Source of the DNA: Parapedobacter defluvii
Lineage (GTDB): Bacteria > Bacteroidota > Bacteroidia > Sphingobacteriales > Sphingobacteriaceae
Direction: 5' to 3'
Assembly (NCBI RefSeq): GCF_014642075.1
Contig: NZ_BMIK01000008.1
Location: 1-64,000 of the forward strand
DNA: 64,000 bases
The position numbers were made by a program, and so were the translations under genes. Positions 3,730 through 26,973 of the stretch are shown here, piece by piece; position 1 is the first letter of the stretch; every line of letters begins with the position of its first letter. The notes below the pieces were generated by a model that worked only from the letters and a program-made list of their open reading frames with translations, had not been told where the DNA came from and did not search any database.

Positions 3730-4524
3730 ATGCAGAGCTATCACCGCTTTTTCTTTTTATTGCTCTATTGTTGGGTGCCTCTATTGACGCTCGCTCAGCA
3801 AGAGCGTATCCTGATTCATGCGCACAACGATTACCACCAGCGCAAACCGTTCTACCAAGCCTATGCACAACATGTTTATTCGATTGAGGCGGATGTATTT
3901 GTTACAGACAAAGGTGCCGTGCTGGTAGGCCATGATTTGCATGAGCTGCAGGATAATCGGACCCTGGAGTCGATGTACATCACTCCTATCGTACATGCGT
4001 TTGCATCGAATGGGGGGAGGGCCTGGGCAGCTTCTGACGACAGATTTGTGCTGCTCATTGATCTAAAGACGCCTGCAGCGATCACGCTGCAACCTGTGGT
4101 TGACCTGATTGCTATGCATCCGGAGGTATTTGATGAAAATGTAAATCCATATGCTGTCTCGGTAGTTATTTCAGGAGACATGCCTAATCCGGTGGATTTT
4201 GACAATTTTCCCCGTTTCATTTCATTTGATGGTCGGCTAGGGGTCGACTATACCGCGGAGCAATTGGAGCGCGTTGCTTTCGTCAGCGCACCGTTTTCTA
4301 GCTATGCAAGTTGGGATGGAAAAGGCATGCTGACGGAAAGGGATCGGGATAAAGTTGCCGCAGCCGTCAAAAAAGTACATGGATTAAGTAAAAAAATACG
4401 GTTTTGGGGAACGCCAGACGGGGTTACTGCGTGGAATACGCTATATGAAATGGGGATTGATATCATCAATACCGATCAGGTTGAACATTGTGTCGAATTC
4501 TTTCGGCGCAAACCTTTGCGTTGA
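3730..4524 (+). CDS. Exported PI-PLC / glycerophosphodiester phosphodiesterase-like protein
   Basis: This 264-residue protein has a hydrophobic signal peptide (residues about 5-22, ending near TLAQQ) and a PI-PLC/GDPD TIM-barrel signature: HAHNDY (30-35), the acidic pair EAD (53-55) and GHD (67-69). These are the His/Glu/Asp residues that bind metal and catalyse phosphodiester cleavage in the superfamily. Later segments (DLKTP, FWGTPDGVTAW, GIDIINTD) complete the barrel. It should act in the periplasm or outside the cell. Lying between LacI-type operators and upstream of an inositol pathway, it is a candidate for releasing inositol or inositol phosphate from a lipid or glycerol phosphodiester; that substrate is inferred. 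Its last codons (RKPLR, stop) overlap the next operator. Confidence 0.85.
   Translation: MQSYHRFFFLLLYCWVPLLTLAQQERILIHAHNDYHQRKPFYQAYAQHVYSIEADVFVTDKGAVLVGHDLHELQDNRTLESMYITPIVHAFASNGGRAWAASDDRFVLLIDLKTPAAITLQPVVDLIAMHPEVFDENVNPYAVSVVISGDMPNPVDFDNFPRFISFDGRLGVDYTAEQLERVAFVSAPFSSYASWDGKGMLTERDRDKVAAAVKKVHGLSKKIRFWGTPDGVTAWNTLYEMGIDIINTDQVEHCVEFFRRKPLR
4507..4520. promoter_or_regulatory. LacI/PurR-type operator 2
   Basis: CGCAAACCTTTGCG, the same 14-bp core as operator 1. It overlaps the final codons and stop of the preceding gene and lies 20 bp upstream of the -33 element of the susC promoter. Confidence 0.8.
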
Positions 4525-4540
4525 AATAGTGGCTAACCAC

Positions 4541-4572
4541 TTGATTTATTGACCCAAAAGAGATTAGTTTTG
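4541..4572 (+). promoter_or_regulatory. Promoter of the first susC operon
   Basis: TTG at 4541-4543, a 21-nt spacer, then TAGTTTTG at 4565-4572, an exact TAnnTTTG match. The context is near-identical to the promoter at 3515-3545. It predicts a start near 4578 and a leader of about 410 nt. Confidence 0.65.
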
Positions 4573-4669
4573 TGATTACAATTATAAATTATAAAAGGGT
4601 AATTATCGAGTTGAATAAAGCATGATAGATGCTTAATTGCCTAACAGCGGCTATCTTTAAAACAAACGT

Positions 4670-4695
4670 AACTTGGGTTTAACCACAAGTTTTTT
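4670..4695 (+). terminator. Possible intrinsic terminator/attenuator in the susC leader
   Basis: AACTTGGG (4670-4677) pairs with CC-A-CAAGTT (4683-4691, one bulged A) around the loop TTTAA. A run of six T (4690-4695) follows. It lies about 90 nt inside the predicted transcript and about 290 nt before the susC start, so it could attenuate the operon. Confidence 0.45.
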
Positions 4696-4988: not shown

Positions 4989-7900
4989 ATGAATCATTTA
5001 TTACTAAGTAAATGGTATGTAAGAATAACTTTACTTTATCTTATCATCGTTGCGGGCATGCCCTCGCTGTCGGCAGTAACCAGCCAAGCGGCACAGCAGA
5101 GGGGACGTATCGTAGGACGCGTAACTGATGTTCAGGGGATACCGCTGTCGGGTGCAAGTATACGCATAGCGGGCCAGCAACAAAGTGTGGCTACGGATGA
5201 CGATGGCCGATTTTCTCTTTCGGTGGCACCGGGTGAGTACGTTGTTGAAGCTTCTTATATTTCATATGCTGCACAGCAGGTGACGGTGACCGTCCGTGAA
5301 GGCGCGACTGCTGACGCCAATTTTGTTTTAACCGAAGAAAGCGGTGCATTGGCGGAGGTCGTCGTGGTAGGTTACGGTACCCAGCGGAAAGTTAACCTGA
5401 CCGGTGCTGTGGATCAGGTAACCTCCGAAGTCTTCGAGAACCGGCCCATCCCCAATATTTCCCAGGGATTGGTAGGTGCCGTACCCAACCTGAATATTCG
5501 GATGCTCGATGGCAAGCCTACCCAATCCCCCGCCTTCAATGTCCGGGGAACAACCTCAATCGGTCAAGGAGGCAATGCGTTGATCCTGATCGATGGCGTG
5601 GAGGGTGATCCGCGGATGCTGAATCCGAATGATATCGAGAGCATCTCCATACTAAAAGATGCCTCGTCGGCATCTATCTATGGGGCACGTGCTGCTTTCG
5701 GTGTGGTGCTGATTACCACCAAATCTGCCGCCGAAGGAAAAACTTCCATTACCTATTCCACCAATTTGTCGTCCAAATCACCGACAACTGTTCCAGACAA
5801 TATTACCGATTCATACCCTTGGGCCCAAGGATTCAGCGATGCATGGTCGCGATGGAACGATAACGGCAATACACCCACAGCAATAAACAAGACATTGCCT
5901 TTTTCACCTGCTTATTTAGCCGAGATAAAAAGACGCTGGGAAGACCCGTCGTTGCCACGGGTAGAGGTAAACCCATCCACGGGTGAATACCAATATTATT
6001 ACAGTACCGATTGGTATAAAGAATTGTATAAAGAGCGGTTCTTCGCGCAGGATCATAACCTGGCCCTGTCTGGCGGAAATGATAAAACGGCATTTTATGT
6101 AAGCGGTCGATATAACGGTCAGGATGGACTTTTCCGCTACAATACAGATACCTATAAGATGTATAACCTGCGGGCCAAGGGCAACATCCAACTGACACGC
6201 TGGTTGCAACTGGAAAACAATACCGAATATTCACGGATGGAATACCACCAGCCGTTGAACGTAGGCGAAGGCAGTGGCATCTGGCGTAACATGGCGGATG
6301 AGGGGCACCCATTGGCTCCGCTATTGAATCCCGATGGGACGTTGTCATTCCCGGCGGCTTACACCGTGGGCGATTACTATATCGGAAGAAACGGTACAGA
6401 CGAAGTGCGGCGCTTCCTGAAAAACCGGACGGCGGCAAAGGCAGAATTTTTCGATAAAAGCCTTACCCTTCGCAGTGATTTTACCTTCCAAAGCATGGAT
6501 ATCGGATCACAGCAAAACCGGGTGCAGGTTCCTTACAGCCGTTACGAGGGTGTGATCGGTTATACGGGTACAAATACCAATGATCTGCAGGAATTCAGGC
6601 GTACGACCGACTACCTGGCTACCAATGTGTATGCCGATTATGTGAAGTCATTCAATGATGCGCACAACATCAACCTGCTAGCCGGCTTCAACTACGAGCA
6701 ATCGCTGGAAAAAAGCCTGACCGCACGCCGCAACGGGATCGTGTACGAAGACGCCGATGACATCAATTTGGCATTGGGGCAGAGTATCGTGACCAGTGGA
6801 GGTTACAAAAAATGGGCGATTGCGGGCGGGTTTTTCCGCGTAAACTATAATTTCAAGGAGCGGTACCTCCTGGAGGTCAATGGCCGCTATGACGGCTCTT
6901 CGAAGTTTCCGGGAGATCAACAGTGGGCCTTTTTCCCTTCGGCATCCATCGGCTGGCGGATTTCAGAAGAACCCTTTTGGAACGTAAATCCCACGGCATT
7001 CTCCAATGTGAAATTCCGCGCATCTTACGGGTCTTTAGGTAACGGAAATATTGATCCCTATTCATTTACAGAAAACTTCGCCATTTCACAGTCGGGCCGT
7101 ATTATCAATGGTGTGCGGCCGCAGCGTACCGGACAACCGGGAGTCATACCCGCTGGGCTGACCTGGGAAACGTCCACTACCGGCAATCTGGGGCTGGAGT
7201 TTTCGAGTCTGAATAACCGCCTTCAGTTTGTGGGCGATCTATACCGTCGCTGGACAAGCGATATGTTTACGGTTGGCCCTACCTTGCCGGCAATTTATGG
7301 TACGACTGTACCCAAAGGTAACTACGCAGATCTGGAAACGACAGGCTGGGAAGTATCCCTCACCTGGCGGGATCAATTTGCGATGGCTGAAAAACCGTTT
7401 ACGTATGATGTACGGGTAACGATGTCTGACTACCGGGCGATCATCACCAAGTATAACAATCCCGATAAATTACTGACCGACCACTACGTAGGCAAGCGGG
7501 TCGGTGAAATATGGGGTTATCAGGTAGAAGGACTGTTCCGGTCGGAAGAGGAAATCGCCAACTCGCCGTCACAGGCAAATGTTCCGAGTACCAATACGCG
7601 GAAAACGTATGTTGGAGATTTGAAGTTTAGAAATTTAGATGGAGATGACATAATTTATCAGGGGGCTAACCAAGCGGATGATTCGGGCGACAAGACCATC
7701 ATCGGGAATTCTGAACCACGGTATACGTATGGATTTAATTTAAATGGCGATTGGAACGGTTTTTTCCTGTCGGCCTTTTTCCAGGGGGTGCTGAAACAGG
7801 ATTATTACCCATCGGCCGAAGCACGATTTTGGGGACAGTACAACCGGCCTTACAACCAGTATCCGCGCTGGCATGAGAACAACATGTTCCGCCCCGAGTT

Positions 7901-8261
7901 GGGCAACTTTGATGCCTACCTGCCGCGTTTGGTGGGGTATATCGCACAGGGTACGGGACGTGCGCTACAGGTGCCCAATGATCGCTACCTACAAAATGCG
8001 GCCTATATCCGCCTGCGAAATTTGCAAATCGGATATTCGCTCCCTAAACGGCTGATTTCGAAATTTCATGCCAATGACCTGCGATTGTATGTCTCTGCGG
8101 AAAACCTGTGGACTTGGTCGCCCATGTATAAATGGACAAAAGATACCGACGTGACGAACATTTACGGTTCAGATAGGGATTTGAGTGGTGGGACGAGCGG
8201 CGATGGATACAACTATCCGATGCTGAAAACCATATCGATGGGTTTAACCGTTAATTTTTAA
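4989..8261 (+). CDS. SusC/RagA-type TonB-dependent outer-membrane transporter
   Basis: This 1090-residue outer-membrane importer has a signal sequence (about 1-35), a carboxypeptidase-regulatory-like domain (about 38-125, GRIVGRVTDVQGIPLSGASI), a TonB plug starting at VVVGYGTQRKVNLTGAV (about 125-245, with LILIDGVEGDP and SIYGARAAFGVVLITTK), and a long beta-barrel ending in an aromatic residue (LTVNF). It imports a substrate presented by the SusD lipoprotein 18 bp downstream, powered by TonB. The block holds phosphodiesterase-like and phosphatase-fold enzymes plus inositol catabolism rather than polysaccharide hydrolases, so an inositol-containing phosphodiester or glycoconjugate is a plausible cargo. 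It is probably under LacI-type control through the operator at 4507. Confidence 0.96.
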   Translation: MNHLLLSKWYVRITLLYLIIVAGMPSLSAVTSQAAQQRGRIVGRVTDVQGIPLSGASIRIAGQQQSVATDDDGRFSLSVAPGEYVVEASYISYAAQQVTVTVREGATADANFVLTEESGALAEVVVVGYGTQRKVNLTGAVDQVTSEVFENRPIPNISQGLVGAVPNLNIRMLDGKPTQSPAFNVRGTTSIGQGGNALILIDGVEGDPRMLNPNDIESISILKDASSASIYGARAAFGVVLITTKSAAEGKTSITYSTNLSSKSPTTVPDNITDSYPWAQGFSDAWSRWNDNGNTPTAINKTLPFSPAYLAEIKRRWEDPSLPRVEVNPSTGEYQYYYSTDWYKELYKERFFAQDHNLALSGGNDKTAFYVSGRYNGQDGLFRYNTDTYKMYNLRAKGNIQLTRWLQLENNTEYSRMEYHQPLNVGEGSGIWRNMADEGHPLAPLLNPDGTLSFPAAYTVGDYYIGRNGTDEVRRFLKNRTAAKAEFFDKSLTLRSDFTFQSMDIGSQQNRVQVPYSRYEGVIGYTGTNTNDLQEFRRTTDYLATNVYADYVKSFNDAHNINLLAGFNYEQSLEKSLTARRNGIVYEDADDINLALGQSIVTSGGYKKWAIAGGFFRVNYNFKERYLLEVNGRYDGSSKFPGDQQWAFFPSASIGWRISEEPFWNVNPTAFSNVKFRASYGSLGNGNIDPYSFTENFAISQSGRIINGVRPQRTGQPGVIPAGLTWETSTTGNLGLEFSSLNNRLQFVGDLYRRWTSDMFTVGPTLPAIYGTTVPKGNYADLETTGWEVSLTWRDQFAMAEKPFTYDVRVTMSDYRAIITKYNNPDKLLTDHYVGKRVGEIWGYQVEGLFRSEEEIANSPSQANVPSTNTRKTYVGDLKFRNLDGDDIIYQGANQADDSGDKTIIGNSEPRYTYGFNLNGDWNGFFLSAFFQGVLKQDYYPSAEARFWGQYNRPYNQYPRWHENNMFRPELGNFDAYLPRLVGYIAQGTGRALQVPNDRYLQNAAYIRLRNLQIGYSLPKRLISKFHANDLRLYVSAENLWTWSPMYKWTKDTDVTNIYGSDRDLSGGTSGDGYNYPMLKTISMGLTVNF

Positions 8262-8279: not shown

Positions 8280-10052
8280 ATGAAAACATTTCATTTTCTA
8301 TTGGCGGTATTTAGCATCTTACCCTTCGCTGCCTGTGATTTGGACGAGATGCCCGTAGACACCGGAACAAACCAAGCCATATTTGGGTCGGCTAGCGGGA
8401 TGGAGCTTTATGCCAATTCGTTTTACGACATCCTGCCTAATACGGATGTAGGCGTTTTTCAAGGCGATGATAATTCGGATCTGGTCGCGCGAAACGGTGT
8501 AGACGACTTGCTGTCTCCCGGAGCATTAAGCCCGATTACAAGTTCGGGATGGGCAGTAAGCGACTGGGACGATCTCCGGAACATCAATTATTTTATTGAA
8601 AATGCCGAGAAAAGTACAGTGGCTGAAAAAAATCATTATATCGGCATGGCAAGGTTCTTCCGCGCGCTTTTTTATTTCAATATGGTAAAACGCTTTGGCG
8701 ATGTACCCTGGATTGATAAAACTATCGAAGTGGACGATGAAGAAGCCTTATACGGAACGAGGACAAGCCGTTTTGAGGTTATGGATAAGGTGTTGGCCGA
8801 TCTGGACTACGCCATCGCGAACATTGCCCTGACAAGCGATCCTAGCTGTACACGGATTACCCAGAACGTGGCACGGGCTTATAAAACGCGGATATGTTTA
8901 TATGAAGCATCGTTCCGGAAATATCATACCCGCTATGATATGCAATCAACGGCGAATGCCTGGTTCCAGCACGTGGTGGATGCAGCAAATGCAATTACCG
9001 GTTTCACCCTGCATCAGGCAACCATCCCTGAGCGCTCTTACCGTGATCTGTTTATCACAAAAGCCCCTTATGCCGATGAGACCATTCTGGCGGTGGCACT
9101 GGATGCCAGCTTGCAAGTGTTCAGTTCGGCCAACCGTCGTTTTATCAGCCCGACCTATGGAAATCGGCCCAGTCTGACCCGCAATTTCGTGAACACTTAC
9201 CTGAAATTAGACGGTACACCCTTTACCAGTGATCCAGGCTATCGGACGATGCCTTTTGTCGATGAAGTGAAAGACCGCGATCTGCGTTTGCAACAGACCA
9301 TCCGTTTGGGTGACTACCATCGGACGGAAAATGCGGTTCCGGTTATTGCACCTCCGAATTTCAATCAGACATTTACCGGTTACCAGCCGATCAAGTGGTG
9401 TTACGACGAACGATTTCCCTATGACGATGAGAGCCGGAACGACAACGCGCACATCATCATGCGGTGGGGCGAGGTGTTGTTGAACAAGGCGGAGGCACTA
9501 GCGGAATTGGGAACGATGACCAACGCGGAGTGGACGGCTACCGTCGGAGCCTTGCGTCAACGCGCAGGTATCACGGGATCTACATTGACAACGATACCTA
9601 CCGCCGCCGATCCGTATTTGGTGGATTATTACCTAGGTAAATTCACCAATCCCGTGTTGCTGGAAGTCATGCGCGAGCGGGCTGTCGAATTGGTATTCGA
9701 AGGGCTTCGCCCCGATGATTTGAAGCGGTGGCATATGGGTGAGCTATTTCAGGAAGCTCCGTTGAACGGTATTTATGTTGCAAATCTAGGTGAACAGGAC
9801 CTGAATGGCGATGGTGTGATGGATGTCTGCTTCTATCAGGGTACGCGACCGGCTCCATCCAATTCTACGGTGGCGTTTGTGGATGTGTCGCCCTCTACCG
9901 CTGTAGGAAGGATACAACTGTCTAATGGAACCTCCGGGGAAGTACGTTGGAATCCCGGCGTACGCGAATGGTTGGACAAAAAGTACCTTTATCCAATCCC
10001 CCAAGCGGCTCTGGATGTGAATAAAAACTTGGGTCAGAACCCGGACTGGTAA
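8280..10052 (+). CDS. SusD/RagB-type outer-membrane lipoprotein
   Basis: This 590-residue SusD-family surface lipoprotein has a signal peptide with a lipobox Cys at about residue 20 (LPFAAC). SusD helical motifs include the YFRALFYFNMVKRFGDVPWID segment (about 125-145) and a C-terminal LYPIPQAALDVNKNLGQNPDW tail typical of the family. It caps the SusC barrel encoded immediately upstream and captures substrate. A hairpin with a short T-run follows the gene and may give susCD more transcript than the genes downstream. Confidence 0.95.
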   Translation: MKTFHFLLAVFSILPFAACDLDEMPVDTGTNQAIFGSASGMELYANSFYDILPNTDVGVFQGDDNSDLVARNGVDDLLSPGALSPITSSGWAVSDWDDLRNINYFIENAEKSTVAEKNHYIGMARFFRALFYFNMVKRFGDVPWIDKTIEVDDEEALYGTRTSRFEVMDKVLADLDYAIANIALTSDPSCTRITQNVARAYKTRICLYEASFRKYHTRYDMQSTANAWFQHVVDAANAITGFTLHQATIPERSYRDLFITKAPYADETILAVALDASLQVFSSANRRFISPTYGNRPSLTRNFVNTYLKLDGTPFTSDPGYRTMPFVDEVKDRDLRLQQTIRLGDYHRTENAVPVIAPPNFNQTFTGYQPIKWCYDERFPYDDESRNDNAHIIMRWGEVLLNKAEALAELGTMTNAEWTATVGALRQRAGITGSTLTTIPTAADPYLVDYYLGKFTNPVLLEVMRERAVELVFEGLRPDDLKRWHMGELFQEAPLNGIYVANLGEQDLNGDGVMDVCFYQGTRPAPSNSTVAFVDVSPSTAVGRIQLSNGTSGEVRWNPGVREWLDKKYLYPIPQAALDVNKNLGQNPDW

Positions 10053-10061
10053 CAGAAATTG

Positions 10062-10102
10062 ATGATGATGGTGGTATGTTTGGCAACTGCCATCATCATT
10101 TT
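10062..10102 (+). terminator. Hairpin between susD and the phosphatase-fold gene
   Basis: ATGATGATGG (10062-10071) pairs perfectly with CCATCATCAT (10090-10099), followed by TTTT. The T-run is short, so this may be a partial terminator or an mRNA-stabilising structure that sets unequal expression within the operon. Confidence 0.5.
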
Positions 10103-10117
10103 AAGACAGAAGACATC

Positions 10118-10981
10118 ATGAAAACGTACTTCCTTTTAGTTTTTTTCTTTTTTTTCAGTACGGCTGCATTTTCCCAGCAAACAGCGAGCGCTGAGATCAG
10201 GGTAGCAAGTTATAACCTCCGGATGGATACCCCCCGTGATAGCTTGAATGCATGGCCATACCGCAAAGAGAATGTCAAAGCCTTGATTCAGTACCATGAT
10301 TTCGATATCATAGGAACGCAGGAGGGGTTTATCCATCAATTGAAAGATATATTGGAAATACCCGAATATACTTATTTCGGTGCCGGCCGAGACGATGGCA
10401 AGCAGGCCGGAGAACATTCGGCAATCATTTATAAGAAAGATCGGTTCGTCGTTGTTGATTCCGGCAACTTCTGGCTGAGCGAAACGCCCGAAACACCGGG
10501 ATTGGGATGGGATGCTACCTGTTGCAACCGGATATGTTCATGGGTTAAATTTTTGGATAACATCAACCGGCGTGAATTTTATGTTTTCAACGTTCACTTT
10601 GATCATCAGGGGGTGATTGCACGTAAGGAGTCCGGAAAGCTGATGGTCGCAAAAATCAAGGAAATAGCTGGAGAAGAGCCGGCGATATGTACAGGCGATT
10701 TTAATTCGACTCCGGAAACTGAACAGATTAAAGGAATGTCAGCCATTCTGAGCGATGCTTATACCGTATCGGAATTGCCACCCTATGGTCCGGTAGGCAC
10801 CACAAACTCGTTCCGGTTTACCGCTCCGATGAAACACCGTATCGACTACGTATTCGTAAGTAAGCATTTTAAGGTATGCAAGTACGCTGTACTGACCGAT
10901 GCAAAAGATCAGCGCTATCCATCCGATCATCTTCCGGTTGTGACCCATATACAATTTGTTAACCAATTGATTACTAGATAA
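10118..10981 (+). CDS. Exported endonuclease/exonuclease/phosphatase-family enzyme
   Basis: This 287-residue exported protein has a very hydrophobic signal peptide (about 1-20) and all the signature elements of the DNase I-like EEP fold: SYNLR (Asn33), TQEG (Glu69), NVHFDHQG, TGDFNSTPE and the terminal SDHLPV Asp-His pair. These coordinate Mg2+ and activate water for phosphoester cleavage. The superfamily includes inositol-polyphosphate 5-phosphatases, bacterial sphingomyelinases and nucleases, so sequence alone does not fix the substrate. Its place between two SusC/D pairs upstream of a full inositol pathway favours a phosphate-ester or phosphodiester of inositol. The ATG at 10118 is chosen because it opens the signal peptide. 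The next susC starts 8 bp downstream. Confidence 0.9.
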   Translation: MKTYFLLVFFFFFSTAAFSQQTASAEIRVASYNLRMDTPRDSLNAWPYRKENVKALIQYHDFDIIGTQEGFIHQLKDILEIPEYTYFGAGRDDGKQAGEHSAIIYKKDRFVVVDSGNFWLSETPETPGLGWDATCCNRICSWVKFLDNINRREFYVFNVHFDHQGVIARKESGKLMVAKIKEIAGEEPAICTGDFNSTPETEQIKGMSAILSDAYTVSELPPYGPVGTTNSFRFTAPMKHRIDYVFVSKHFKVCKYAVLTDAKDQRYPSDHLPVVTHIQFVNQLITR

Positions 10982-18749: not shown

Positions 18750-18773
18750 CGATTGTTAACCAAACGACTAACC

Positions 18774-20648
18774 ATGAAAACCACCAAATTAACCACCGCT
18801 CAGGCGATCATCCGTTTCCTCGACCAGCAATACGTCGAGCGCGACGGCGTAACCCATAAGTTCATCGCGGGATGTTTCGGGATTTTCGGTCACGGCAACG
18901 TAGGCGGAATCGGTCAGGCCTTGTTCGAATACCCGGCCCTGCGGTACTACCAGGCCCGCAATGAGCAGGCCATGGTGCATACTGCTGCGGCTTATAGCCG
19001 GATGAAAAACCGTCTTTCTACGCTGGCCTGCACCTCGTCCATCGGGCCGGGGGCAACGAACATGCTGACCGGGGCGGCTGCGGCCACCATCAACCGGGTG
19101 CCGGTACTGCTGTTGCCGGGGGATGTCTTTGCCGGTCGTCATGTCGATCCGGTACTCCAACAGCTGGAATACCAACTGGCGCCCGATGTAACGGTCAACG
19201 ACTGCTTCAGGCCGGTTTCCCGTTTTTGGGACCGGATCAATCGGCCGGAACAGCTGATGGCTTCCCTACCTCAGGCGCTGCGGGTGTTGACGTCCCCGGC
19301 GGAGACGGGTGCTGTTACGCTCTGCCTGCCACAGGACGTGCAGTCCGAGGCGTTTGACTATCCCGAGGAACTCTTTCACCGGCGGGTATGGTTCATCCCG
19401 AGGGCATTGCCTGATGCTGCGCTGTTGGACCGTGCTGCCACTCAGATCCGCGCTGCCAAACGGCCGCTTATCGTCGCCGGTGGCGGTGTGATCTATAGCG
19501 AGGCATCGGATGCATTGCGTGCCTTTGTCCATGCCACGGGCATACCGGTGGCCGAGACATTTGCCGGAAAAGGATCGCTGGCTTACGACGATCCGCACCA
19601 CCTGGGCGCGATGGGTGCCACCGGTACCGAAGGTGCCAATGCCCTAAGTGCGGAGGCCGATGTGGTGATCGGGATCGGTACGCGGTACAGCGACTTTACC
19701 ACCGCATCCAAGACAGCGTTCCAACACCCCGATGTTGCATTTATCAATATCAATGTCGCCGAATTTGATGCCCATAAGCAGTCAGCATTGGCGCTCACCG
19801 GCGATGCCCGGGCTACGTTGGAAGCCTTGGCCGACCGCCTGGCCGGATACCGTGTAGCGTCAGACTACCGGGATCGGGTAGCGGCCTACGGCCGGAGTTG
19901 GGACGACAGGGTGACGGCAGCCTACACGCCGGAAGACGAAGGGCGGCTTTCCCAGGCAGAGGTCATCGGGATGGTCAACACCTTTTCCACACCGCAGGAT
20001 GTGGTGGTTTGTGCTGCGGGCAGCATGCCCGGCGACCTGCACAAGCTATGGCGTACGCGCAATCCGAAAGGTTTCCACCTAGAGTACGGCTATTCGTGCA
20101 TGGGGTATGAGATTGCTGGCGGTCTGGGCGTCAAGATGGCCGATCCGGGTCGCGAGGTATATGTCATGGTAGGTGATGGAAGTTATTTGATGATGTCGTC
20201 TGAGATCGTGACGTCCATACAGGAGGATGTGAAGCTGACGATCATCCTGATCAATAACCATGGGTTCGCCAGCATCGGCGGGCTTTCCAAGTCGTTGGGA
20301 ACCGAGGGCTTCGGTACGCAGTACCGGGCACGGGATAAGGGTTCAGGACTGCTCGACGGGGATGTGCTGCCCGTGGATCTCGCACGGAATGCGGAAAGCC
20401 TGGGTGCCGACGTCATCCGCACACACAATGCGGCATCGTTGTCGGCTGCCCTGCAACAGGCCAGGACCCGCAGCAAGACGACGGTGATCTACGTCGAGTC
20501 GGTGCCCGAACGCAAAATGGCTGGATACGGTCACGCGTGGTGGGAGGTACCCATCGCTGCGATATCGGAAACGCCTGCGGTGCGGGAGGCATATGAGCAA
20601 ACCCAGCGGCAAAAAACCAAGCAACGTCATCACATATCATCCTTATAA
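18774..20648 (+). CDS. iolD: 3D-(3,5/4)-trihydroxycyclohexane-1,2-dione acylhydrolase
   Basis: IolD is a thiamine-diphosphate enzyme that hydrolyses the cyclic diketone to 5-deoxy-glucuronate, opening the inositol ring. The 624-residue protein has the TPP N-terminal domain (FGHGNVGGIGQAL, with the RNEQAMVH glutamate near 70), a central domain (PLIVAGGGVIYSEAS) and the TPP-binding GDG...NN motif (Gly467-Asp468-Gly469 to Asn494-Asn495). The ATG at 18774 is preferred over upstream codons because it gives the family N-terminus. It is 24 bp downstream of iolC. Confidence 0.95.
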   Translation: MKTTKLTTAQAIIRFLDQQYVERDGVTHKFIAGCFGIFGHGNVGGIGQALFEYPALRYYQARNEQAMVHTAAAYSRMKNRLSTLACTSSIGPGATNMLTGAAAATINRVPVLLLPGDVFAGRHVDPVLQQLEYQLAPDVTVNDCFRPVSRFWDRINRPEQLMASLPQALRVLTSPAETGAVTLCLPQDVQSEAFDYPEELFHRRVWFIPRALPDAALLDRAATQIRAAKRPLIVAGGGVIYSEASDALRAFVHATGIPVAETFAGKGSLAYDDPHHLGAMGATGTEGANALSAEADVVIGIGTRYSDFTTASKTAFQHPDVAFININVAEFDAHKQSALALTGDARATLEALADRLAGYRVASDYRDRVAAYGRSWDDRVTAAYTPEDEGRLSQAEVIGMVNTFSTPQDVVVCAAGSMPGDLHKLWRTRNPKGFHLEYGYSCMGYEIAGGLGVKMADPGREVYVMVGDGSYLMMSSEIVTSIQEDVKLTIILINNHGFASIGGLSKSLGTEGFGTQYRARDKGSGLLDGDVLPVDLARNAESLGADVIRTHNAASLSAALQQARTRSKTTVIYVESVPERKMAGYGHAWWEVPIAAISETPAVREAYEQTQRQKTKQRHHISSL

Positions 20649-20667
20649 ATATAAATTCCTTTTGCCT

Positions 20668-22248
20668 ATGTGGGCCATACTGAGTTTTGTTGTCTTTACA
20701 CTGTTTGTGGGTTGCTATGCATGGTGGCGCATGCGGAAAGTCAACCTTCATACGCAAGACGGTTATTTCCTGGGCGGGCGCAGCCTGACGGGACCGGTCA
20801 TTGCTGCCTCGTTGATCATGACGAATATTTCGACCGAACACCTGGTCGGCATGAACGGCTCGGCGTATAAAAACGGGTTTATCATCATCGCATGGGAGGT
20901 GACTTCGGCCCTGGCCCTGATCGTCGCAGCTGTCTACTTCGTGCCGAAATACCTGCGGATGGGATTGACAACGATACCGGAATACCTGGAGCGGCGGTTT
21001 GACAAAGGAACCCGCTCCCTGATTGCACTTTTTTTGATGGTCTCGTTTGCGGTGACCTTGCTGCCCATTGTCCTCTACACAGGGGCCATCAACCTCGAAA
21101 GCATTTTTGACCTTTCCACCATGCTGGGTGTCAGTACGGAAAGAGGACTTTGGATCACCGTCGTGGTGGTCGGGTGCCTGGGCGCTGCCTACGCCATTAT
21201 CGGTGGGTTAAAAGCAGTTGCGGTATCGGATGTTATTTACGGGTATGGGCTGCTGATCGGGGGCATGCTCATTCCGGTGTTGGCACTCATTTACATCGGC
21301 GACGGCAACCCCCTGACGGGCTTGGGGCGGGTGTTTGAAAACAGCCCGGAAAAGTTTAACGTTATCGGGGATGAAGACTCCGTGCTGCCGTTCAGCACGT
21401 TGTTTACCGGACTGGTGATCAATCAACTGTATTTCTGGTGTATGAACCAGACCATCGTCCAGCGTGTGCTGGGCGCCAAGAACCTCAAGGAAGCACAGAA
21501 GGGGTTGCTCTATACCGGGCTATTGAAAATATTGGTGCCCTTTATCATCGTGTTGCCCGGGGTTATCGGATTCTACTATTTCCAGGATAGTTACTACGAC
21601 CAGCAGGACCTGGTATATCCGGCGTTGGTGAAGCGCGTCCTGCCCGTGCCGCTGCTGGGTTTGTTTGCGGCGGTCATTGTCGGTGCGGTGCTAAGCACGT
21701 TTAACGCCGTGCTGAACAGCGCATCGACCATATTCAGTATCGATGTGTACAAGCGGTTGATTAATAAAAATGCCAGCGAGCGCACCCTGGTGCGCATGGG
21801 TCGGCTGGTGGCTACGGTGTTGGCGATCACGTCCATCATCGCCGCTCCTTTTGTCGCCAATGCACCCGACGGGCTTTATCAGTTGCTGCAGGAGTTAAAC
21901 GGGATTTTCTTTATTCCCATTGCCTCCATTATGTTGGGCGGATTTTTCTTTAGGCGCATCTCCGCCCAGGGAGCAAAAGTCGCCTTGATCACCGGACTGA
22001 TATTTTACGTGCTCTGCACGTTCGTGATTGAGGTTGATATCCATTTCGTGCATGTTTGGGGGATCGAGTTTCTGCTGAACATGGCGGTCATGTTTGCGGT
22101 TTCGTGGTGGTATCCAAGAGACATTATCGCCTTGGAAAATCCGGTAGCTGAAACGGTTTCGATGGAAGCGTGGAGCTATACACGGCCCTTCGCCATCCTA
22201 CTGGTGGTGATTACGGTGGCCATTTATATCTTATTGGGAAATGTTTAA
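20668..22248 (+). CDS. Sodium:solute symporter (SSS/SLC5 family), probable inositol transporter
   Basis: This inner-membrane symporter of about 526 residues belongs to the SSS family (YidK/SGLT-like). It has the family signature [19 protein letters not shown] after the first helix, [16 protein letters not shown] in the loop, and around 13 predicted hydrophobic segments. The ATG at 20668 begins just before the first membrane helix and 19 bp after iolD; a longer frame from 20593 would overlap iolD by 56 nt and adds only a polar stretch. Its place inside the iol operon argues for sodium-driven myo-inositol uptake from the periplasm, but substrate cannot be read from sequence. Confidence 0.9.
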
Positions 22249-22259
22249 AAGCTAAGTTC

Positions 22260-23735
22260 ATGGAATTACTACAGAATTATATCGACGGCGAGTGGCGTGC
22301 CAGTAACGAGTGGCAGGCCATTGACGTGATCAACCCAGCAACGCAGCAATGCATGGCACGTGTACCCTATGGCGGAGCCACGGCCCGCGATGTCGACGAG
22401 GCCGTCGCTGCGGCGTCGAAAGTGTCCGCGGCATGGGCGGAGGTGCCCGTGATGCAGCGCGTGCAGCCGTTATACCGTCTCAAGGCATTGTTGGAAGAAC
22501 ACCTGGAAGAGTTGGCGGAGATCGTTACCAACGAATGCGGCAAGACACGAGCCGAATCGATCGGCGAATTGCAACGTGCCATCGAAAACGTGGAGACGGC
22601 CTGTGCCACGCCGGTGCTGATGCAAAGCGAATTTTCGGAAAACATCACCCGTGGTATTGACGAGTTCGTCATCCGGCAACCCGTCGGTATTTGTGCCTGC
22701 ATTGCCCCGTTCAATTTTCCGGGGATGATTCCCTTTTGGTTTCTGCCTTATGCGATCGCCTGCGGCAACACATTCCTCATCAAACCTTCGGAAAAAGTGC
22801 CGTTGACCATGCAGAAAGTGATGGGCCTGATTGACCGCATCGGTTTGCCTGCCGGTGTCGTTAACCTCGTGCATGGGGGTAAGGAAACGGTGGATGCGCT
22901 CTTGGAGCACCCCCAGATCAAGGCGATCAGCTTTGTCGGCTCGACGCGGGTGGCCCGGTATATCTATGCCAAGGCAGCACAGCATGGTAAACGTGTACAG
23001 GCACAGGGCGGAGCCAAGAATCCGGTCGTTGTATTGCCCGATGCGGATTTGGAAACGACCTCACGCATCGTTGTGGACAGTGTGTATGGGTGTGCGGGGC
23101 AGCGTTGCCTGGCTGCGTCAAACATCTTGCTGGTGGGTGACCGGCAAGGACAGGTCAAGGATGCGCTGTATGAGGCGGCGAAGAGCCGGAAGACCGGCTA
23201 TGGCTGGGCCGATGGGGTAGAGATGGGGCCGGTGATATCCCCGGGGAGCAAGGCACGGATTGAGCAGCTGATCGAACAGGGAACGCATGAGGGAGCCAAG
23301 GTGCTGCTGGACGGGCGAGGCGCTGCCATAGAGGGGTTTGAAACGGGTAACTTTATCAAACCTACCGTTCTCACTGACGTGCCGCTGGATGGGGAGCTGA
23401 TCCGGACCGAAATATTCGGCCCGGTCATGAGCCTGATCAACCTGTCGACGATCGAGGATGCGGTAACGTTTATCAACCGCAATGCTTACGGCAATATGGC
23501 CTGCCTGTTTACCAGCAGCGGCGCCAGCGCGCGGAAATTCCGCAGTGAAGCCAATGCAGGCAATATCGGTATTAATATCGGTGTGGCAGCGCCGATGGCG
23601 CAGTTCCCCTTCAGCGGGTGGAACGACAGTTTCTTCGGCGACCTGCATGGGCAGGGGCGGCATGCCCTAGAATTTTTTACACAAACGAAAGTTGTCGTTG
23701 AACGGTGGCCGAAAGAATGGTCGCGAAAATTTTAG
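22260..23735 (+). CDS. iolA: Methylmalonate/malonate-semialdehyde dehydrogenase (acylating)
   Basis: IolA (MmsA) oxidises malonate semialdehyde, with CoA and NAD+, to acetyl-CoA and CO2, the last step of inositol breakdown. The 491-residue aldehyde dehydrogenase carries [18 protein letters not shown] in the cofactor domain, the [11 protein letters not shown] loop and the catalytic cysteine in GQRC (Cys283). The C-terminal [17 protein letters not shown] is typical of MMSDH. The ATG at 22260 is chosen because it begins the family N-terminus ([12 protein letters not shown]); upstream codons would lie inside the symporter gene. Confidence 0.95.
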
Positions 23736-23740
23736 GCAAA

Positions 23741-24646
23741 ATGGACACCATCAAGATTGCCAATGCACCGTGCTCCTGGGGGGCACTGGAATTTGACCTC
23801 GATGCCAAGGCTCCTGACCACCTTCAGGTGTTGCAGGAGATCCGGGAAACGGGTTACGTAGGCACCGAGCTGGGCGATTGGGGCTTCATGCCCACGGATC
23901 CCCTGGCTTTGCGGGCAGTTGTCAGCCGGTACGGCCTGGACATGATCGGCGCATTCGTGCCGGTAGCGCTGGCTGACGGTACTGCTCATGAGCAGGGGGT
24001 CGCTGATGCACTGCGTGTAGCCGGACTACTGGCCGCTGCCGGTTACCGGGATGCGTTTATCGTTTTGGCCGATGACAACGGCACCGTGGCCGAGCGGACG
24101 AACCACGCCGGGCGTGTCACGCCGGATATGGGACTCGATGACCGGCGCTGGGAAACCTTCGCAAACGGCGCCATGCGCATTGCCCGTGCGGTGCACGACA
24201 GGTATGGGATGCGTACGGTGTTTCACCATCATTGTGCGGGTTATGTGGAGACACCGGACGAATTAGAAAACTTACTGTCCCTCACCGACGCGGAACTGTT
24301 GGGGTTGTGCTTTGATACCGGGCATTATGCATTCGGTGGCGGAGACCCTTTGGAGGGTATCACGAAATACCGGGACCGGATCTGGCACGTCCATTTCAAG
24401 GACTACGATCCGCATGTGGGTGAACAGTCGCGCGTGAAAAACTGGGATTACTTCGAATCGGTGCGCCAGGGTGTGTTTTGCGAGCTGGGAAAAGGCAGCG
24501 TGGATTTCGCCAACATACTGGATGTGCTGGAAAATATCGGCTACCAAGGTTGGATCGTTGTGGAGCAGGATGTGCTTCCGGGTATGGGCGCACCGAAGGA
24601 ATGTGCCCGCAACAACAGGGTTTATCTGCAACAATTGGGAATATAA
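23741..24646 (+). CDS. iolE: Myo-inosose-2 dehydratase
   Basis: IolE dehydrates scyllo-inosose (2-keto-myo-inositol) to the trihydroxycyclohexanedione. The 301-residue TIM-barrel protein (xylose-isomerase-like) opens with IKIANAPCSWGALEFD, a classic IolE start. It contains the metal-site stretches FHHHCAGYVET, LCFDTGHYAFGGGDP and WHVHFKDYD. The ATG at 23741 is used because it lies 5 bp after iolA and yields the standard N-terminus; the longer frame from 23705 overlaps iolA. Confidence 0.95.
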   Translation: MDTIKIANAPCSWGALEFDLDAKAPDHLQVLQEIRETGYVGTELGDWGFMPTDPLALRAVVSRYGLDMIGAFVPVALADGTAHEQGVADALRVAGLLAAAGYRDAFIVLADDNGTVAERTNHAGRVTPDMGLDDRRWETFANGAMRIARAVHDRYGMRTVFHHHCAGYVETPDELENLLSLTDAELLGLCFDTGHYAFGGGDPLEGITKYRDRIWHVHFKDYDPHVGEQSRVKNWDYFESVRQGVFCELGKGSVDFANILDVLENIGYQGWIVVEQDVLPGMGAPKECARNNRVYLQQLGI

Positions 24647-24651
24647 AACGT

Positions 24652-25644
24652 ATGCAACTTAAAATCGGAATCATTGGCCTTGGAAGAATAGGTGCGATAC
24701 ACTATAACAACATCACCCAGCAAATACCGGAAGCCGAGGTGGTGATGGCCGCGGATGTACGCCACGAAGCATTGCCGCCACATGTGCAGGTTGGAACGGC
24801 TGAGCAATTGATCAGCCATCCCGAGGTGGAAGCGGTCATCATTTGCTCGCCAACGGATACCCACGCGGACTACGTCGAAACGTGTGCCCGTGCGGGCAAG
24901 CATGTGTTCTGCGAAAAACCGCTTGATCTCTCGCTGGTGCGTATCCGGCAGACACTTTCGGTTGTACAGCAGCACGGTATCAAGCTGATGCTCGGTTTCA
25001 ACAGGCGGTTTGATGCGAACTTTATGAAGTTGCGCTCGCTGGTTACCGAAGGTAAAATCGGAGACACCCATCTCGTAAAAATCACAAGCCGTGATCCGGA
25101 GCCGCCGTCGCTGACATACCTTCGGAGCTCGGGAGGATTGTTTATGGACATGGCCATCCATGATTTCGACATGGCACGGTATATCATGGGTAAAGAGGTG
25201 GTGCAGGTATACGCCGCGGCCGCAACGCTCACAGGTGGAGCCGTGGCGGAAGCGGGCGATATCGACACTGCGGTAGTGACGCTCACCTTTGAAGACGGTT
25301 CCATGGCCGTGATCGACAACAGCCGGCGGGCGGTATACGGATATGACCAGCGCCTGGAGGTCTTCGGCTCCAAGGGAATGGCGTTGGTTGATAACAACAA
25401 ACCCGACAACCACGTGTATTATCACGGCAGTGGCGCGCAGTCGTCGCTACCCCTGCATTTTTTCATGGATCGGTACACCACTTCGTACCTCACCGAGATG
25501 CAAGCTTTTATTAAAGCAGTACGCGGCGAGTGTGAATTGCCGGTAGGCGGCGAAGACGGGTTAAAAGCCGCGTTGATTGCCGTGGCTGCACAGCAGTCGG
25601 TGAAGGAAAACCGGCCGGTGGCTGTAGGTGAGACAGCCGTTTAG
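24652..25644 (+). CDS. iolG: Inositol 2-dehydrogenase
   Basis: IolG is an NAD-dependent Gfo/Idh/MocA oxidoreductase that oxidises myo-inositol to scyllo-inosose, the first pathway step. The 330-residue protein has the Rossmann motif GLGRIG (9-14), the catalytic EKP (88-90, Lys89), GFNRRFDANF after it and the substrate stretch SSGGLFMDMAIHDFDMARY, all typical of IolG. The ATG at 24652 is 5 bp after iolE. It is the last gene of the main iol run, and its stop codon TAG overlaps operator 4. Confidence 0.95.
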   Translation: MQLKIGIIGLGRIGAIHYNNITQQIPEAEVVMAADVRHEALPPHVQVGTAEQLISHPEVEAVIICSPTDTHADYVETCARAGKHVFCEKPLDLSLVRIRQTLSVVQQHGIKLMLGFNRRFDANFMKLRSLVTEGKIGDTHLVKITSRDPEPPSLTYLRSSGGLFMDMAIHDFDMARYIMGKEVVQVYAAAATLTGGAVAEAGDIDTAVVTLTFEDGSMAVIDNSRRAVYGYDQRLEVFGSKGMALVDNNKPDNHVYYHGSGAQSSLPLHFFMDRYTTSYLTEMQAFIKAVRGECELPVGGEDGLKAALIAVAAQQSVKENRPVAVGETAV

Positions 25645-25655
25645 CAAACGTTTGC
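25644..25655. promoter_or_regulatory. LacI/PurR-type operator 4
   Basis: GCAAACGTTTGC is a perfect 12-bp palindrome with the same half-site as operators 1-3 but a central CG. It begins in the iolG stop codon, and its TTTG doubles as the -33 element of the following promoter. Confidence 0.75.
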
Positions 25656-25682
25656 GCATTTCGTCCCAAAAGGTTACTTTTG
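25651..25682 (+). promoter_or_regulatory. Promoter of the GH88-family gene
   Basis: TTTG at 25651-25654, a 20-nt spacer, then TACTTTTG at 25675-25682 (exact TAnnTTTG). The -33 lies inside operator 4, so regulator binding should directly affect this promoter. Confidence 0.65.
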
Positions 25683-25737
25683 GCGTGCCGCTGACGTATA
25701 GGATGGCGGTATGGCGAAACCAAACGATAAACGGACC

Positions 25738-26973
25738 ATGAAGATACACCTTAACAATTTCCTGCTGATGGGCTGTGTGATCGCCCTTTTTGTGCTTGCC
25801 TGTCAGCAACAGTCGACAGATCGGCGTAGAGCCCTGCGATTGACCCCGGCTTTTATTACCCAACAGCTTGACGACGCCGTTGCTCAGATAAAGGTATTAG
25901 CAGACCATGTGCCTGCTGACCGCATGCCGCGTACGTTTCAGGCCGACACGAGCGTCAGCTCGGATACCGAATGGTGGACGTCCGGTTTCTACCCCGGTTC
26001 ACTGCTATATTTATATGAATATTCTGGAGATGAGGCATTGTTGCAGTTAGCCAAAGACAAGCTGACCATACTTGAAAAAGAAAAGTACAACAAAGGGACC
26101 CACGACCTCGGCTTCATGTTATATTGCAGTTTTGGCAATGCCCTGCGGCTAACGGGCGACACAGCAGCCTATAAAGAAATATTACTCACTGGAGCCGAAT
26201 CGCTCATCAGTCGGTACAACCCCACGGTCAGGGCAATCCGCTCGTGGGAAGGATGGACCTATCCAGTCATCATCGATAACATGATGAACCTGGAATTCCT
26301 TACCCAAGCTTCCAAGCTCAGCGGAGATCCCAAATACCGCGACATTGCGATAACCCACGCCAATACCACCATCAAAAATCATTACCGCCCCGATTACAGC
26401 TCGTACCATGTGATCGATTATAATCCAGCGGATGGCGGCATTGTCGCAAAAAAGACGGCCCAAGGAGCTTTTGATGAATCAGTTTGGGCGCGCGGACAGG
26501 CTTGGGGACTGTATGGCTATGTAATGATGTACCGGGAGACCGGAGATAAAACTTACCTCGATTTTGCGGAAAACGTGGCGGCATTCATCCTCAACCATCC
26601 GAATATGCCGGATGACGGGGTTCCTTACTGGGACTTTGATGCACCTGACCTGCCTGACGAAAGCCCCTATGCTGCAGACTACAAAGCGAATCGGGACGCG
26701 TCTGCCGCTTCGATATTGGCGTCTGCATTGATCGAATTGAGTACGCATACAGCAGGTGAGACCAGTGCTCACTACCTGACCAAAGCAGAAAAAATAGTAG
26801 AAAGCCTCTCCAAGGCACCGTATAAAGCTGAAAGCGGCACCAACGGCGGTTTTATCCTAAAGCACAGCGTGGGATCCATTCCGCATGGCGGCGAAATTGA
26901 CGTGCCGCTTACCTATGCAGATTATTATTACATCGAAGCATTGATGCGGTATAAAAGGCTGTTGGAAGGATAG
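25738..26973 (+). CDS. Unsaturated glucuronyl hydrolase family (GH88) lipoprotein
   Basis: This (alpha/alpha)6-barrel hydrolase of about 411 residues is of the GH88 type. Family members hydrate the 4,5-double bond of unsaturated uronic acids, releasing them from oligosaccharides left by lyases. Visible features are the lipobox Cys near residue 23 (LFVLAC), DTEWWTSGFYPG, the catalytic-type THDLGFM, WARGQAWGLYG, and a GEIDVPLTYADYYYIEALMR C-terminus. The ATG at 25738 is preferred because it opens the lipoprotein signal. No polysaccharide lyase is present in the window, and the gene shares the LacI-type operator of the inositol locus. A uronic acid attached to inositol is one possible natural context, offered as an inference. 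Confidence 0.88.
   Translation: MKIHLNNFLLMGCVIALFVLACQQQSTDRRRALRLTPAFITQQLDDAVAQIKVLADHVPADRMPRTFQADTSVSSDTEWWTSGFYPGSLLYLYEYSGDEALLQLAKDKLTILEKEKYNKGTHDLGFMLYCSFGNALRLTGDTAAYKEILLTGAESLISRYNPTVRAIRSWEGWTYPVIIDNMMNLEFLTQASKLSGDPKYRDIAITHANTTIKNHYRPDYSSYHVIDYNPADGGIVAKKTAQGAFDESVWARGQAWGLYGYVMMYRETGDKTYLDFAENVAAFILNHPNMPDDGVPYWDFDAPDLPDESPYAADYKANRDASAASILASALIELSTHTAGETSAHYLTKAEKIVESLSKAPYKAESGTNGGFILKHSVGSIPHGGEIDVPLTYADYYYIEALMRYKRLLEG

What the first reader, a model, noticed from the sequence alone, without database searches (positions are those of the whole stretch)
3730..26973. Candidate SusCD-based system for importing and degrading inositol phosphodiesters or inositol lipids
All seven enzymes needed to take myo-inositol to acetyl-CoA and DHAP (IolG, E, D, B, C, J, A) plus an SSS symporter sit directly behind two SusC/SusD pairs. 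The exported enzymes placed with these pairs are not glycosidases but a PI-PLC/GDPD-fold phosphodiesterase and an EEP-fold (DNase I/inositol-5-phosphatase/sphingomyelinase superfamily) enzyme, both with intact catalytic motifs. This looks like a utilisation locus built around phosphodiester-linked inositol rather than a plain glycan. The enzyme and pathway assignments are family knowledge; the common substrate is inferred.
Basis: partly seen in the sequence, partly recalled or inferred. Interest (0 to 1): 0.85.

Follow-up and report, generated by a model that had tools for sequence, protein, structure and literature searches.

The report
Inositol-linked phosphodiester uptake and degradation locus
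A bacterium close to Parapedobacter appears to run, as one co-regulated unit, outer-membrane importers, exported phosphodiester- and phosphate-splitting enzymes and a pathway for eating inositol, which points to growth on inositol-containing phospholipid head groups, although the exact substrate is unproven.

Summary
The nearest named loci are Parapedobacter. A LacI-type palindrome (RYGCAAASSTTTGCRY) lies before the PI-PLC-like gene, about 470 bp before susC1 and just before iolJ. All 14 exact copies in the five iol+ genus genomes lie in this locus; the four iol-less ones have none. The same palindrome precedes iolJ in other Bacteroidota, SusCD and PI-PLC-like fusions in Maribacter and Wocania, and an unlinked PI-PLC-like fusion in a Cyclobacteriaceae MAG. 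SusCD2 belongs to a clade usually beside PI-PLC/GDPD-type genes (24 of 31 copies; controls 0 of 20); its nearest relatives show the gene order of the Flavobacterium phosphate-utilisation system PUSI. So an inositol-phosphodiester system is supported. Corrections: the EEP's closest solved relatives include a sugar phosphatase, so it is probably a monoesterase; SusCD1-EEP is a separable module; a glycoside hydrolase is present. Substrate not shown; PI/glycerophosphoinositol and plant GIPC head groups are the main candidates.

The parts
1329..2390 (+). LacI-family regulator 1 (role unknown)
   Evidence: Pfam LacI/Peripla_BP_3; present with LacI2 in all 5 iol+ genus loci (for four, for the window)
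2392..3423 (-). LacI-family regulator 2, candidate inositol repressor
   Evidence: 49-59% identical to the LacI in 19 other iol loci, all of which carry the exact palindrome; the 22 loci whose best LacI is 43% or less carry none
3479..3494 (.). palindrome ACGCAAACCTTTGCGT between lacI2 and the PI-PLC-like gene
3730..4524 (+). exported GDPD/PI-PLC-fold protein, probable phosphodiesterase
   Evidence: Pfam GDPD_2, sub-threshold; model and fold search; invariant H30, H32, E53, D55, H68, K113
4506..4521 (.). palindrome GCGCAAACCTTTGCGT, about 470 bp before susC1, overlapping the end of the PI-PLC-like gene
   Evidence: at or just past the end of the same gene in P. pyrenivorans and P. indicus
4989..8261 (+). 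SusC1
   Evidence: SusC1-SusD1-EEP module found away from iol in two other genomes
8280..10052 (+). SusD1
10076..10981 (+). exported EEP-fold enzyme, probable phosphomonoesterase (real start probably the in-frame ATG at 10118)
   Evidence: nearest solved 3mpr and 4c1r, the latter deposited as mannosyl-6-phosphatase
10990..14010 (+). SusC2
14022..15785 (+). SusD2, of the clade that usually lies beside PI-PLC/GDPD-type genes
15797..15812 (.). palindrome ACGCAAACCTTTGCGT directly before iolJ
15850..16830 (+). iolJ, class II aldolase
   Evidence: named by place
16855..17736 (+). iolB
   Evidence: TIGR04378 over cut-off
17733..18749 (+). iolC
   Evidence: TIGR04382 over cut-off
18753..20648 (+). 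iolD
   Evidence: TIGR04377 over cut-off
20656..22248 (+). SSS-family sodium:solute symporter
   Evidence: NF007790 over cut-off (scanned as ORF 20593-22248)
22254..23735 (+). iolA (CoA-acylating semialdehyde dehydrogenase)
   Evidence: TIGR01722 over cut-off
23705..24646 (+). iolE-like
   Evidence: TIGR04379 only hit, below cut-off
24646..25644 (+). iolG
   Evidence: TIGR04380 over cut-off
25642..25657 (.). second, different palindrome (GCAAACGTTTGC core) before GH88, like the one before kduI
   Evidence: before 5 of 5 GH88 and 3 of 3 kduI genes and nowhere else in the 24 stretches of the genus that were scanned
25711..26973 (+). GH88 with lipoprotein-type start, unsaturated glucuronyl hydrolase family
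   Evidence: 3wiw E=2.3e-105, 1vd5 E=3.7e-45; follows iolG in 5 of 5 genus loci (and window)

Best explanation
It is a regulon for using inositol bound in phosphodiesters as a carbon (and phosphate) source. SusCD2, probably with SusCD1, takes a water-soluble inositol phosphodiester or glycosyl-inositol phosphate across the outer membrane. The exported GDPD-fold enzyme splits the diester; a periplasmic monoesterase (here the EEP; an alkaline phosphatase domain and a calcineurin-type enzyme in P. soli) removes the phosphate; the symporter takes up myo-inositol; IolG-E-D-B-C-J-A convert it to acetyl-CoA and DHAP (pathway from established knowledge). LacI2 binds the palindromes before the PI-PLC-like gene, susC1 and iolJ and lets go when an inositol metabolite appears. 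Shown here: gene content, fold and conserved residues, the shared palindrome, and repeated joining of such genes to iol in several families. Inferred: direction of transport, order of steps, LacI2 as the binder, the effector, and the substrate itself.
For: Palindrome RYGCAAASSTTTGCRY: 14 exact sites in the five iol+ genus genomes, all in this locus, 0 in the four iol-less ones; the reversed control pattern gave 0 in all nine. The sites precede SusC, GDPD and iolJ also where the outer genes differ: in P. soli another SusCD heading a PI-PLC-like/alkaline phosphatase fusion, in P. tibetensis a lone classical GDPD. Elsewhere they precede alkaline phosphatase/PI-PLC-like fusions, SusCD2 and iolJ in Maribacter and Wocania, a SusC and iolJ in four Belliella and one Cognataquiflexum locus, and, 85 bp upstream, an unlinked calcineurin/PI-PLC-like fusion in a Cyclobacteriaceae MAG whose only other exact site is before iolJ. 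SusD2 clade: 24 of 31 non-own copies of a phylum sample have a PI-PLC-C1, GDPD_2-type or GDPD gene in the roughly 19-kb stretch around them, against 0 of 20 other SusD loci (Fisher p 1e-8); 10 of 14 clade copies in 36 genomes are within 20 kb of iolB; the iol label needs at least 7 changes on the SusD tree.
Against: No biochemistry or expression data. Free myo-inositol alone could be inducer and main substrate. SusCD1-EEP also lives without iol. In the phylum sample 29 of the 31 genomes with the SusD2 clade had no IolB at E<=1e-30, so inositol is not shown to be the clade's common ligand (two of the 29, G398 and G366, do have iolE/iolA or an iolG-like gene beside SusCD2). 73 of the 80 loci show no PI-PLC-like gene in the stretch held, and only 33 of 80 show a SusC. 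P. tibetensis has no PI-PLC-like gene. Only 29 of 80 loci have the exact palindrome. IolE is below its curated cut-off.
Confidence: 0.7

Rival explanations
1. A glycosylated inositol phospholipid, most likely the plant sphingolipid GIPC (Man/GlcNAc-GlcA-Ins-P-ceramide), is the substrate: lipase action frees glycosyl-inositol phosphate, phosphatases remove P, glycosidases or a lyase plus GH88 strip the GlcA from inositol.
For: A GH88 follows iolG in 5 of 5 genus loci, also in P. tibetensis where no rpl3 was found in the 40 kb fetched. Other iol loci carry GH92 (Maribacter, Wocania, G213), GH89 NAGLU (L132), GH28 (L132, G213) and SusCD-'PL-like'-DUF4861-GH88 (L131, L134). [quoted passage not shown] a fungal GIPC phospholipase C is described (PMC11496612, passages and section 10).
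Against: GH88 in this genus shares its palindrome with kduI, not with iolJ, so it may serve general uronate use. No lyase was recognised in the window locus; the PL-like family is unassigned and its model failed. Characterised UGLs act on unsaturated uronides made by a lyase (recalled).
Confidence: 0.25
2. A general organic-phosphorus scavenging system (PUS-like) that happens to sit by iol; the phosphodiesterases serve phosphate supply.
For: SusD2 is 61-68% identical to ten SusD genes that all adjoin a PI-PLC-C1-type gene; 8 of the 10 also have a FecR-type gene (two tested by Pfam, the rest by length and place) and 7 a calcineurin-type gene, the order that fits PUSI of Flavobacterium johnsoniae (PMC8115612). 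In the phylum sample most clade members lack IolB.
Against: The iol palindrome lies by the PI-PLC-like gene, before SusC1 and before iolJ and nowhere else in the genome; the adjacent regulators are LacI-type; the iol label changes repeatedly on both trees.
Confidence: 0.2
3. Chance neighbourhood of unrelated operons.
For: SusCD1-EEP is separable; G+C of 16001-24000 is 55-58% against about 48% to the left.
Against: Shared palindrome confined to the locus, and conservation across families.
Confidence: 0.03

Closest known systems
Phosphate utilisation systems PUSI and PUSII of Flavobacterium johnsoniae (PMC8115612; passages and section 16 seen)
   Same: SusCD pair joined to periplasmic phosphodiesterase/phosphatase; SusD2 61-68% identical to SusD genes in PUSI-like gene order; PUSII PhoA1 is described as PF00245 + PF13653, the architecture found here in the P. 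soli, Maribacter and Wocania fusions
   Different: PUS loci were found by phosphate depletion and the passages seen do not mention iol genes; here LacI-type palindromes and an iol operon; PI-PLC-C1 absent from the genus. Direct identity to the F. johnsoniae proteins was not measured
iol operon of Parapedobacter indicus RK1 (PMC7500135; passages seen)
   Same: Same operon, annotated there as complete
   Different: The passages seen do not connect it to SusCD, a phosphodiesterase or an operator, and report the complete operon only in RK1; here IolB and IolD pass cut-offs in 5 of 9 genus genomes
iol catabolic clusters of bacteria (survey PMC9430895; passages seen)
   Same: iolBCDE core with further iol genes
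   Different: Outer-membrane importer and exported esterases added; the survey found such clusters in 3% of 2,227 Bacteroidetes species
Mannosyl-6-phosphatase, PDB 4c1r, and 3mpr
   Same: Closest solved relatives of the EEP
   Different: Substrate of this EEP unknown
Unsaturated glucuronyl hydrolases of GH88 (3wiw, 1vd5)
   Same: Sequence match over nearly the whole protein
   Different: Placed behind iolG; substrate unknown

Membership tests
PUS (SusCD-type phosphate utilisation system) | SusCD pair of the PUSI-like lineage | tested here: met
   SusD2 61-68% id to ten SusD next to PI-PLC-C1-type genes; 13-row clade with 100/100 support; F. johnsoniae PusD1 itself not compared
PUS (SusCD-type phosphate utilisation system) | Co-located exported phosphodiesterase or phosphomonoesterase | tested here: met
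   3730-4524 and 10076-10981 by family and fold, not by activity
PUS (SusCD-type phosphate utilisation system) | PUSI-type PI-PLC-C1 enzyme | tested here: not met
   PF16670 in 0 of 9 genus genomes
PUS (SusCD-type phosphate utilisation system) | Induction by phosphate starvation | not testable with these tools
   needs expression data
iol myo-inositol catabolic cluster | iolB, C, D, G, A over curated cut-offs | tested here: met
iol myo-inositol catabolic cluster | iolE over curated cut-off | tested here: inconclusive
   only hit TIGR04379, 199 bits vs 290
Carbohydrate PUL | SusCD with CAZymes for a glycan | tested here: inconclusive
   one GH88, no other CAZyme family among the 15 proteins of 3730-26973 scanned
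GH88 unsaturated glucuronyl hydrolase | Near full-length similarity with the conserved Asp regions (HDLGFM, IIDNMMN) | tested here: met
   alignment to 3wiw; that these regions hold the catalytic Asp is recalled
GDPD/PI-PLC superfamily | TIM barrel with conserved His, E-x-D and His residues | tested here: met
   the role of the residues is recalled
Enzyme acting on inositol phosphodiesters | Enzyme assay | not testable with these tools
   none

The most novel reading that the evidence does not exclude
Bacteroidota have a dedicated, LacI2-controlled system that eats the head groups of glycosylated inositol phospholipids, plant GIPC sphingolipids above all, and the same SusCD lineage (PUSI-like) imports inositol-phosphate head groups across the phylum, used for phosphate in Flavobacterium-type genomes and for carbon where iol has been attached.
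Probability: 0.25. Interest if true: 0.88.

Novelty: new variant of a known kind. Interest (0 to 1): 0.68.

Why it matters
SusCD systems are usually read as glycan importers; PUS loci showed a phosphorus version whose ligands are not known. A palindrome that in the genus occurs only in this locus joins a PUS-type importer and exported phosphodiesterase-family genes to the inositol pathway, names a testable ligand class for them, gives a simple footprint with which to find further members of the regulon, and suggests how soil Bacteroidota could use inositol phospholipids or plant GIPCs.

Tried and rejected
(2) SusCD1-EEP as part of the core: dropped because the same module lies away from iol in P. 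tibetensis (SusC 82, SusD 80, EEP 77% id) and in iol-less G028 (SusC 76, SusD 78%; EEP 73%). Only 5 of the 61 EEP places lie at an iol locus (own, P. pyrenivorans, P. indicus, L137 genome, Maribacter). (3) GH88 as a member of the LacI2 regulon: not kept, because its palindrome is of the type found before kduI. (4) The PL-like protein of P. tibetensis as a lyase: no Pfam hit, no solved relative (only weak chance-level rows), AlphaFold2 model pLDDT 48; 'PL-like' is only a working label and no fold search was made. (5) No Rfam family at gathering threshold in 1-30000; promoter and terminator scan no better than shuffles. (6) The IolB hit in G111 has no IolC, IolD or IolG label around it and was set aside. 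(7) Paper searches without use: no hits; no relevant paper in the listing.

Biases and limits: the 49 genomes were 50 of the 80 loci (L126 not held), chosen after and including all non-genus loci then known to have a PI-PLC-like neighbour. Searches (43 genomes; 36 genomes) were chosen partly for SusCD near iol, so presence rates there are not random; I use only linkage among copies. The phylum sample (395 genomes) was drawn by the tool; one search scored at most 3 candidates a genome and at most 37, so copies may have been missed. Two of the 20 control SusD loci (L328, L331) turned out to be iol-linked and were kept; L328's contig has a PI-PLC-like gene just outside the stretch. Seven of the 31 SusD2-clade copies had no PI-PLC/GDPD-type neighbour (L303, L304, L305, L308, L309, L311, L342); several stretches are cut by contig ends. 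Six of the 29 loci with the exact palindrome (L091, L093, L095, L100, L102, L103) show no LacI over 250 aa in the stretch held. Of the 80 loci, 74 have an IolC or IolD label. In the tree the copy at 18 kb (L168) was labelled iol. In one search the reversed control pattern matched once each in P. indicus and P. soli; once in G590. Two of the 20 control SusD loci have an exact palindrome (L324, L327). Gene labels come from HMMs grown from single seeds on the fetched ORFs, not from a curated library: SusC1/SusC2 mean 'SusC-like', and IolG, IolE and LacI labels also catch paralogues.

Full report
WHAT IS THERE. The window lies in a 5.8-Mb genome. The order is lacI1 and lacI2 (convergent), a PI-PLC-like gene, susC1-susD1-EEP-susC2-susD2, iolJ-B-C-D-symporter-iolA-E-G, GH88, then ribosomal protein genes starting with L3 and L4. 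From susC1 on the genes are closely packed; the larger gaps are 464 bp before susC1, 64 bp before iolJ and 66 bp before GH88 (coordinates). IolB, IolC, IolD, IolG, IolA and the symporter pass curated NCBIfam cut-offs, IolE does not.

THE ENZYMES. The 264-aa protein is a weak Pfam GDPD_2 match. Its AlphaFold2 model (pLDDT 86) matches mainly glycerophosphodiester phosphodiesterases (TM about 0.5-0.6) in Foldseek, after a first row that is a multidomain chain titled beta-1,3(4)-glucanase. H30, H32, E53, D55, H68 and K113 are invariant in six relatives. No solved relative was found by sequence at a convincing E-value. The EEP protein's closest solved relatives are 3mpr and 4c1r, the latter deposited as 'mannosyl-6-phosphatase', so I read it as a phosphomonoesterase. 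The last gene is a GH88 close to 3wiw (E 2.3e-105) and to the unsaturated glucuronyl hydrolase 1vd5.

WITHIN THE GENUS. IolB and IolD pass cut-offs in 5 of 9 genus genomes. All five loci keep the lacI pair, at least one SusCD, a GDPD-superfamily gene, the same iol order and GH88, but the outer parts are exchanged. P. soli has a different SusCD, the PI-PLC-like domain fused to an alkaline phosphatase domain (PF00245, 191.6 bits) and a calcineurin-type protein. P. indicus has the domain fused to a classical GDPD and an extra SusCD; P. tibetensis has a lone classical GDPD, another SusCD and the PL-like gene. Exchange that keeps phosphodiesterase-family genes beside iol suggests selection for that function. 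SusC1-SusD1-EEP is a module of its own: it sits elsewhere in P. tibetensis and in iol-less G028.

THE PALINDROME. ACGCAAACCTTTGCGT occurs at 3479 and 15797, and with one change at 4506. Across the nine genus genomes CGCAAANNTTTGCG occurs 4, 3, 3, 2 and 2 times in the five iol+ genomes, 12 of the 14 in the locus, and 0 times in the four iol-less ones. RYGCAAASSTTTGCRY occurs 14 times in the five, all in the locus, and 0 times in the four. In P. tibetensis the three sites precede the GDPD, SusC and iolJ; in P. soli the two precede SusC and iolJ. Of the 80 loci, 29 have an exact site (40 sites; 0.0 on average in 20 shuffles), and 27 of 51 iolJ-led loci have it within 400 bp upstream of iolJ. In Maribacter it precedes the alkaline phosphatase/PI-PLC-like fusion, SusCD2 and iolJ; in Wocania likewise; in four Belliella loci and Cognataquiflexum a SusC (about 360-390 bp upstream) and iolJ (fusions by Pfam). 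In a Cyclobacteriaceae MAG (genome of L101) there are two exact sites: one before iolJ, one 85 bp before an unlinked gene whose product joins a calcineurin domain to the PI-PLC-like domain. Controls: 33 SusD2-clade loci away from an iol operon, 0 exact sites; 20 other SusD loci, 2. The 19 non-genus loci whose LacI is 49-59% identical to LacI2 all have exact sites; the 22 loci whose LacI is 43% or less have none (counted by hand); six further loci have the site but no LacI in the stretch held. So LacI2 is the likely binder.

THE SusCD2 LINEAGE. SusD2 relatives fall in two score groups in 36 genomes: 14 copies at E<=1e-72, the next at 4e-38. Terrimonas (L126) adds one. In 395 phylum genomes 31, own included, have the clade at E<=1e-55; two of the 31 are among the 9 genomes with IolB, and in two more (G398, G366) iolE/iolA or an iolG-like gene just under its cut-off lies beside SusCD2. 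Of the 31 non-own copies 24 have a PI-PLC-C1, GDPD_2-type or GDPD gene nearby, controls 0 of 20 (p 1e-8). The ten nearest (61-68%) all adjoin a PI-PLC-C1-type gene, 8 with a FecR-type gene and 7 with a calcineurin-type gene, which fits PUSI of F. johnsoniae as described (PusD1/PusC1 Fjoh_4168/9, diesterases Fjoh_4172/3; PMC8115612, passages and section 16). On the SusD tree the clade has 100/99 support and the iol label needs 7 changes. On the tree of PI-PLC-like domains the iol label needs 6. Sunxiuqinia has iol, the PI-PLC-like gene, a sigma/FecR-type pair, SusCD2, an EEP and a calcineurin-type gene in a row, the closest independent parallel to the window. Two Planctomycetota MAG contigs have the PI-PLC-like gene directly before iolB without a SusCD label.

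CO-OCCURRENCE OF THE PI-PLC-LIKE GENE. 32 of 49 searched iol+ genomes have it, 37 copies. Six (genomes of L103, L137, L146, L156, L159, L163) lie within about 10 kb of iolB, a seventh (L147) at about 18 kb, an eighth (L097) at about 22 kb; 0.28 expected within 20 kb. Terrimonas (L126, genome not held) is a further case: SusCD, PI-PLC-like gene, iolJ.

THE SUBSTRATE. Inositol plus a phosphodiester is what the regulon has in common. Candidates are glycerophosphoinositol or PI head groups, and glycosylated forms. GH88 behind iolG in all five genus loci, and GH92, GH89, GH28 or another GH88 in some other iol loci, would suit GIPC heads, which hold GlcA-alpha-1,2-inositol with a further sugar on O-4 (PMC12498067, abstract) and which a fungal phospholipase C can release (PMC11496612). 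Against: the palindrome before GH88 is the type found before kduI, so GH88 may belong to general uronate use; and a lone GH88 needs a lyase that was not recognised here.

WHAT IS KNOWN. The P. indicus iol operon is in print (PMC7500135, passages), PUS systems are in print (PMC8115612), and iol clusters are reported in 3% of Bacteroidetes species (PMC9430895, passages). In the listings I saw no paper joining SusCD, phosphodiesterase and iol, or this palindrome; only open-licence full texts were searched, and the listings were cut.

VERDICT.

Noticed in passing
window 25642-25657; L043 7279; L045 7566; L048 12097; L049 7025; L082 6874; L084 6394; L262 14538: A second palindrome (G[CT]AAACGTTT[AG]C) stands before 5 of 5 GH88 and 3 of 3 kduI genes and nowhere else in the 24 genus stretches scanned: likely a uronate operator.
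   Followed up: partly
window 48371-62110 (minus strand): A separate PUL of ordinary look: two GH5, a GH16, an esterase, SusCD and a propeller/Y_Y_Y protein.
   Followed up: no
L050 8115-9662; L088 5509-7446; L228 4623-7985; L229 7034-10387; L379 5925-7799: The PI-PLC-like domain is a fusion partner of classical GDPD, alkaline phosphatase, calcineurin-type and PF04185 phosphoesterase domains.
   Followed up: partly
L089 7105-8892; L131 4396-6321; L134 4480-6261; L338-L340: A family of about 590 aa without a Pfam hit (one member scanned), beside iol in three loci and beside PI-PLC-C1-type genes and SusCD2 in three others; function unknown.
   Followed up: partly
L146 1792-4049; L156 4581-6592: Planctomycetota MAG contigs with the PI-PLC-like gene directly before iolB and no SusCD label; the iolB is 64% identical to ours, which suggests gene transfer or misbinning.
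   Followed up: no
L133 (JADCRZ010000002.1): A record named Williamsia sp. MAG carries a Bacteroidota-type SusCD2 and iol locus: probably misnamed or mixed.
   Followed up: no
L342 7850-10252; L338 684-1748: Two phylum-sample genomes without an IolB hit have iolE/iolA (G398) or an iolG-like gene (G366) beside SusCD2: possible divergent or partial inositol pathways.
   Followed up: no
L043 16164-17104: iolJ of P. soli matches in two overlapping pieces, so it may be broken or misassembled there.
   Followed up: no
window 16001-24000: The iol genes are 55-58% G+C against about 48% on the left side, and in P. tibetensis the iol-GH88 unit has no rpl3 nearby: possible mobility as a unit.
   Followed up: no
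L383 4457 and 6611; L381 6480; L382 6702: CG-centred versions of the palindrome lie before other LacI-SSF or LacI-SusCD pairs, so related LacI regulators seem to share the half-site.
   Followed up: no
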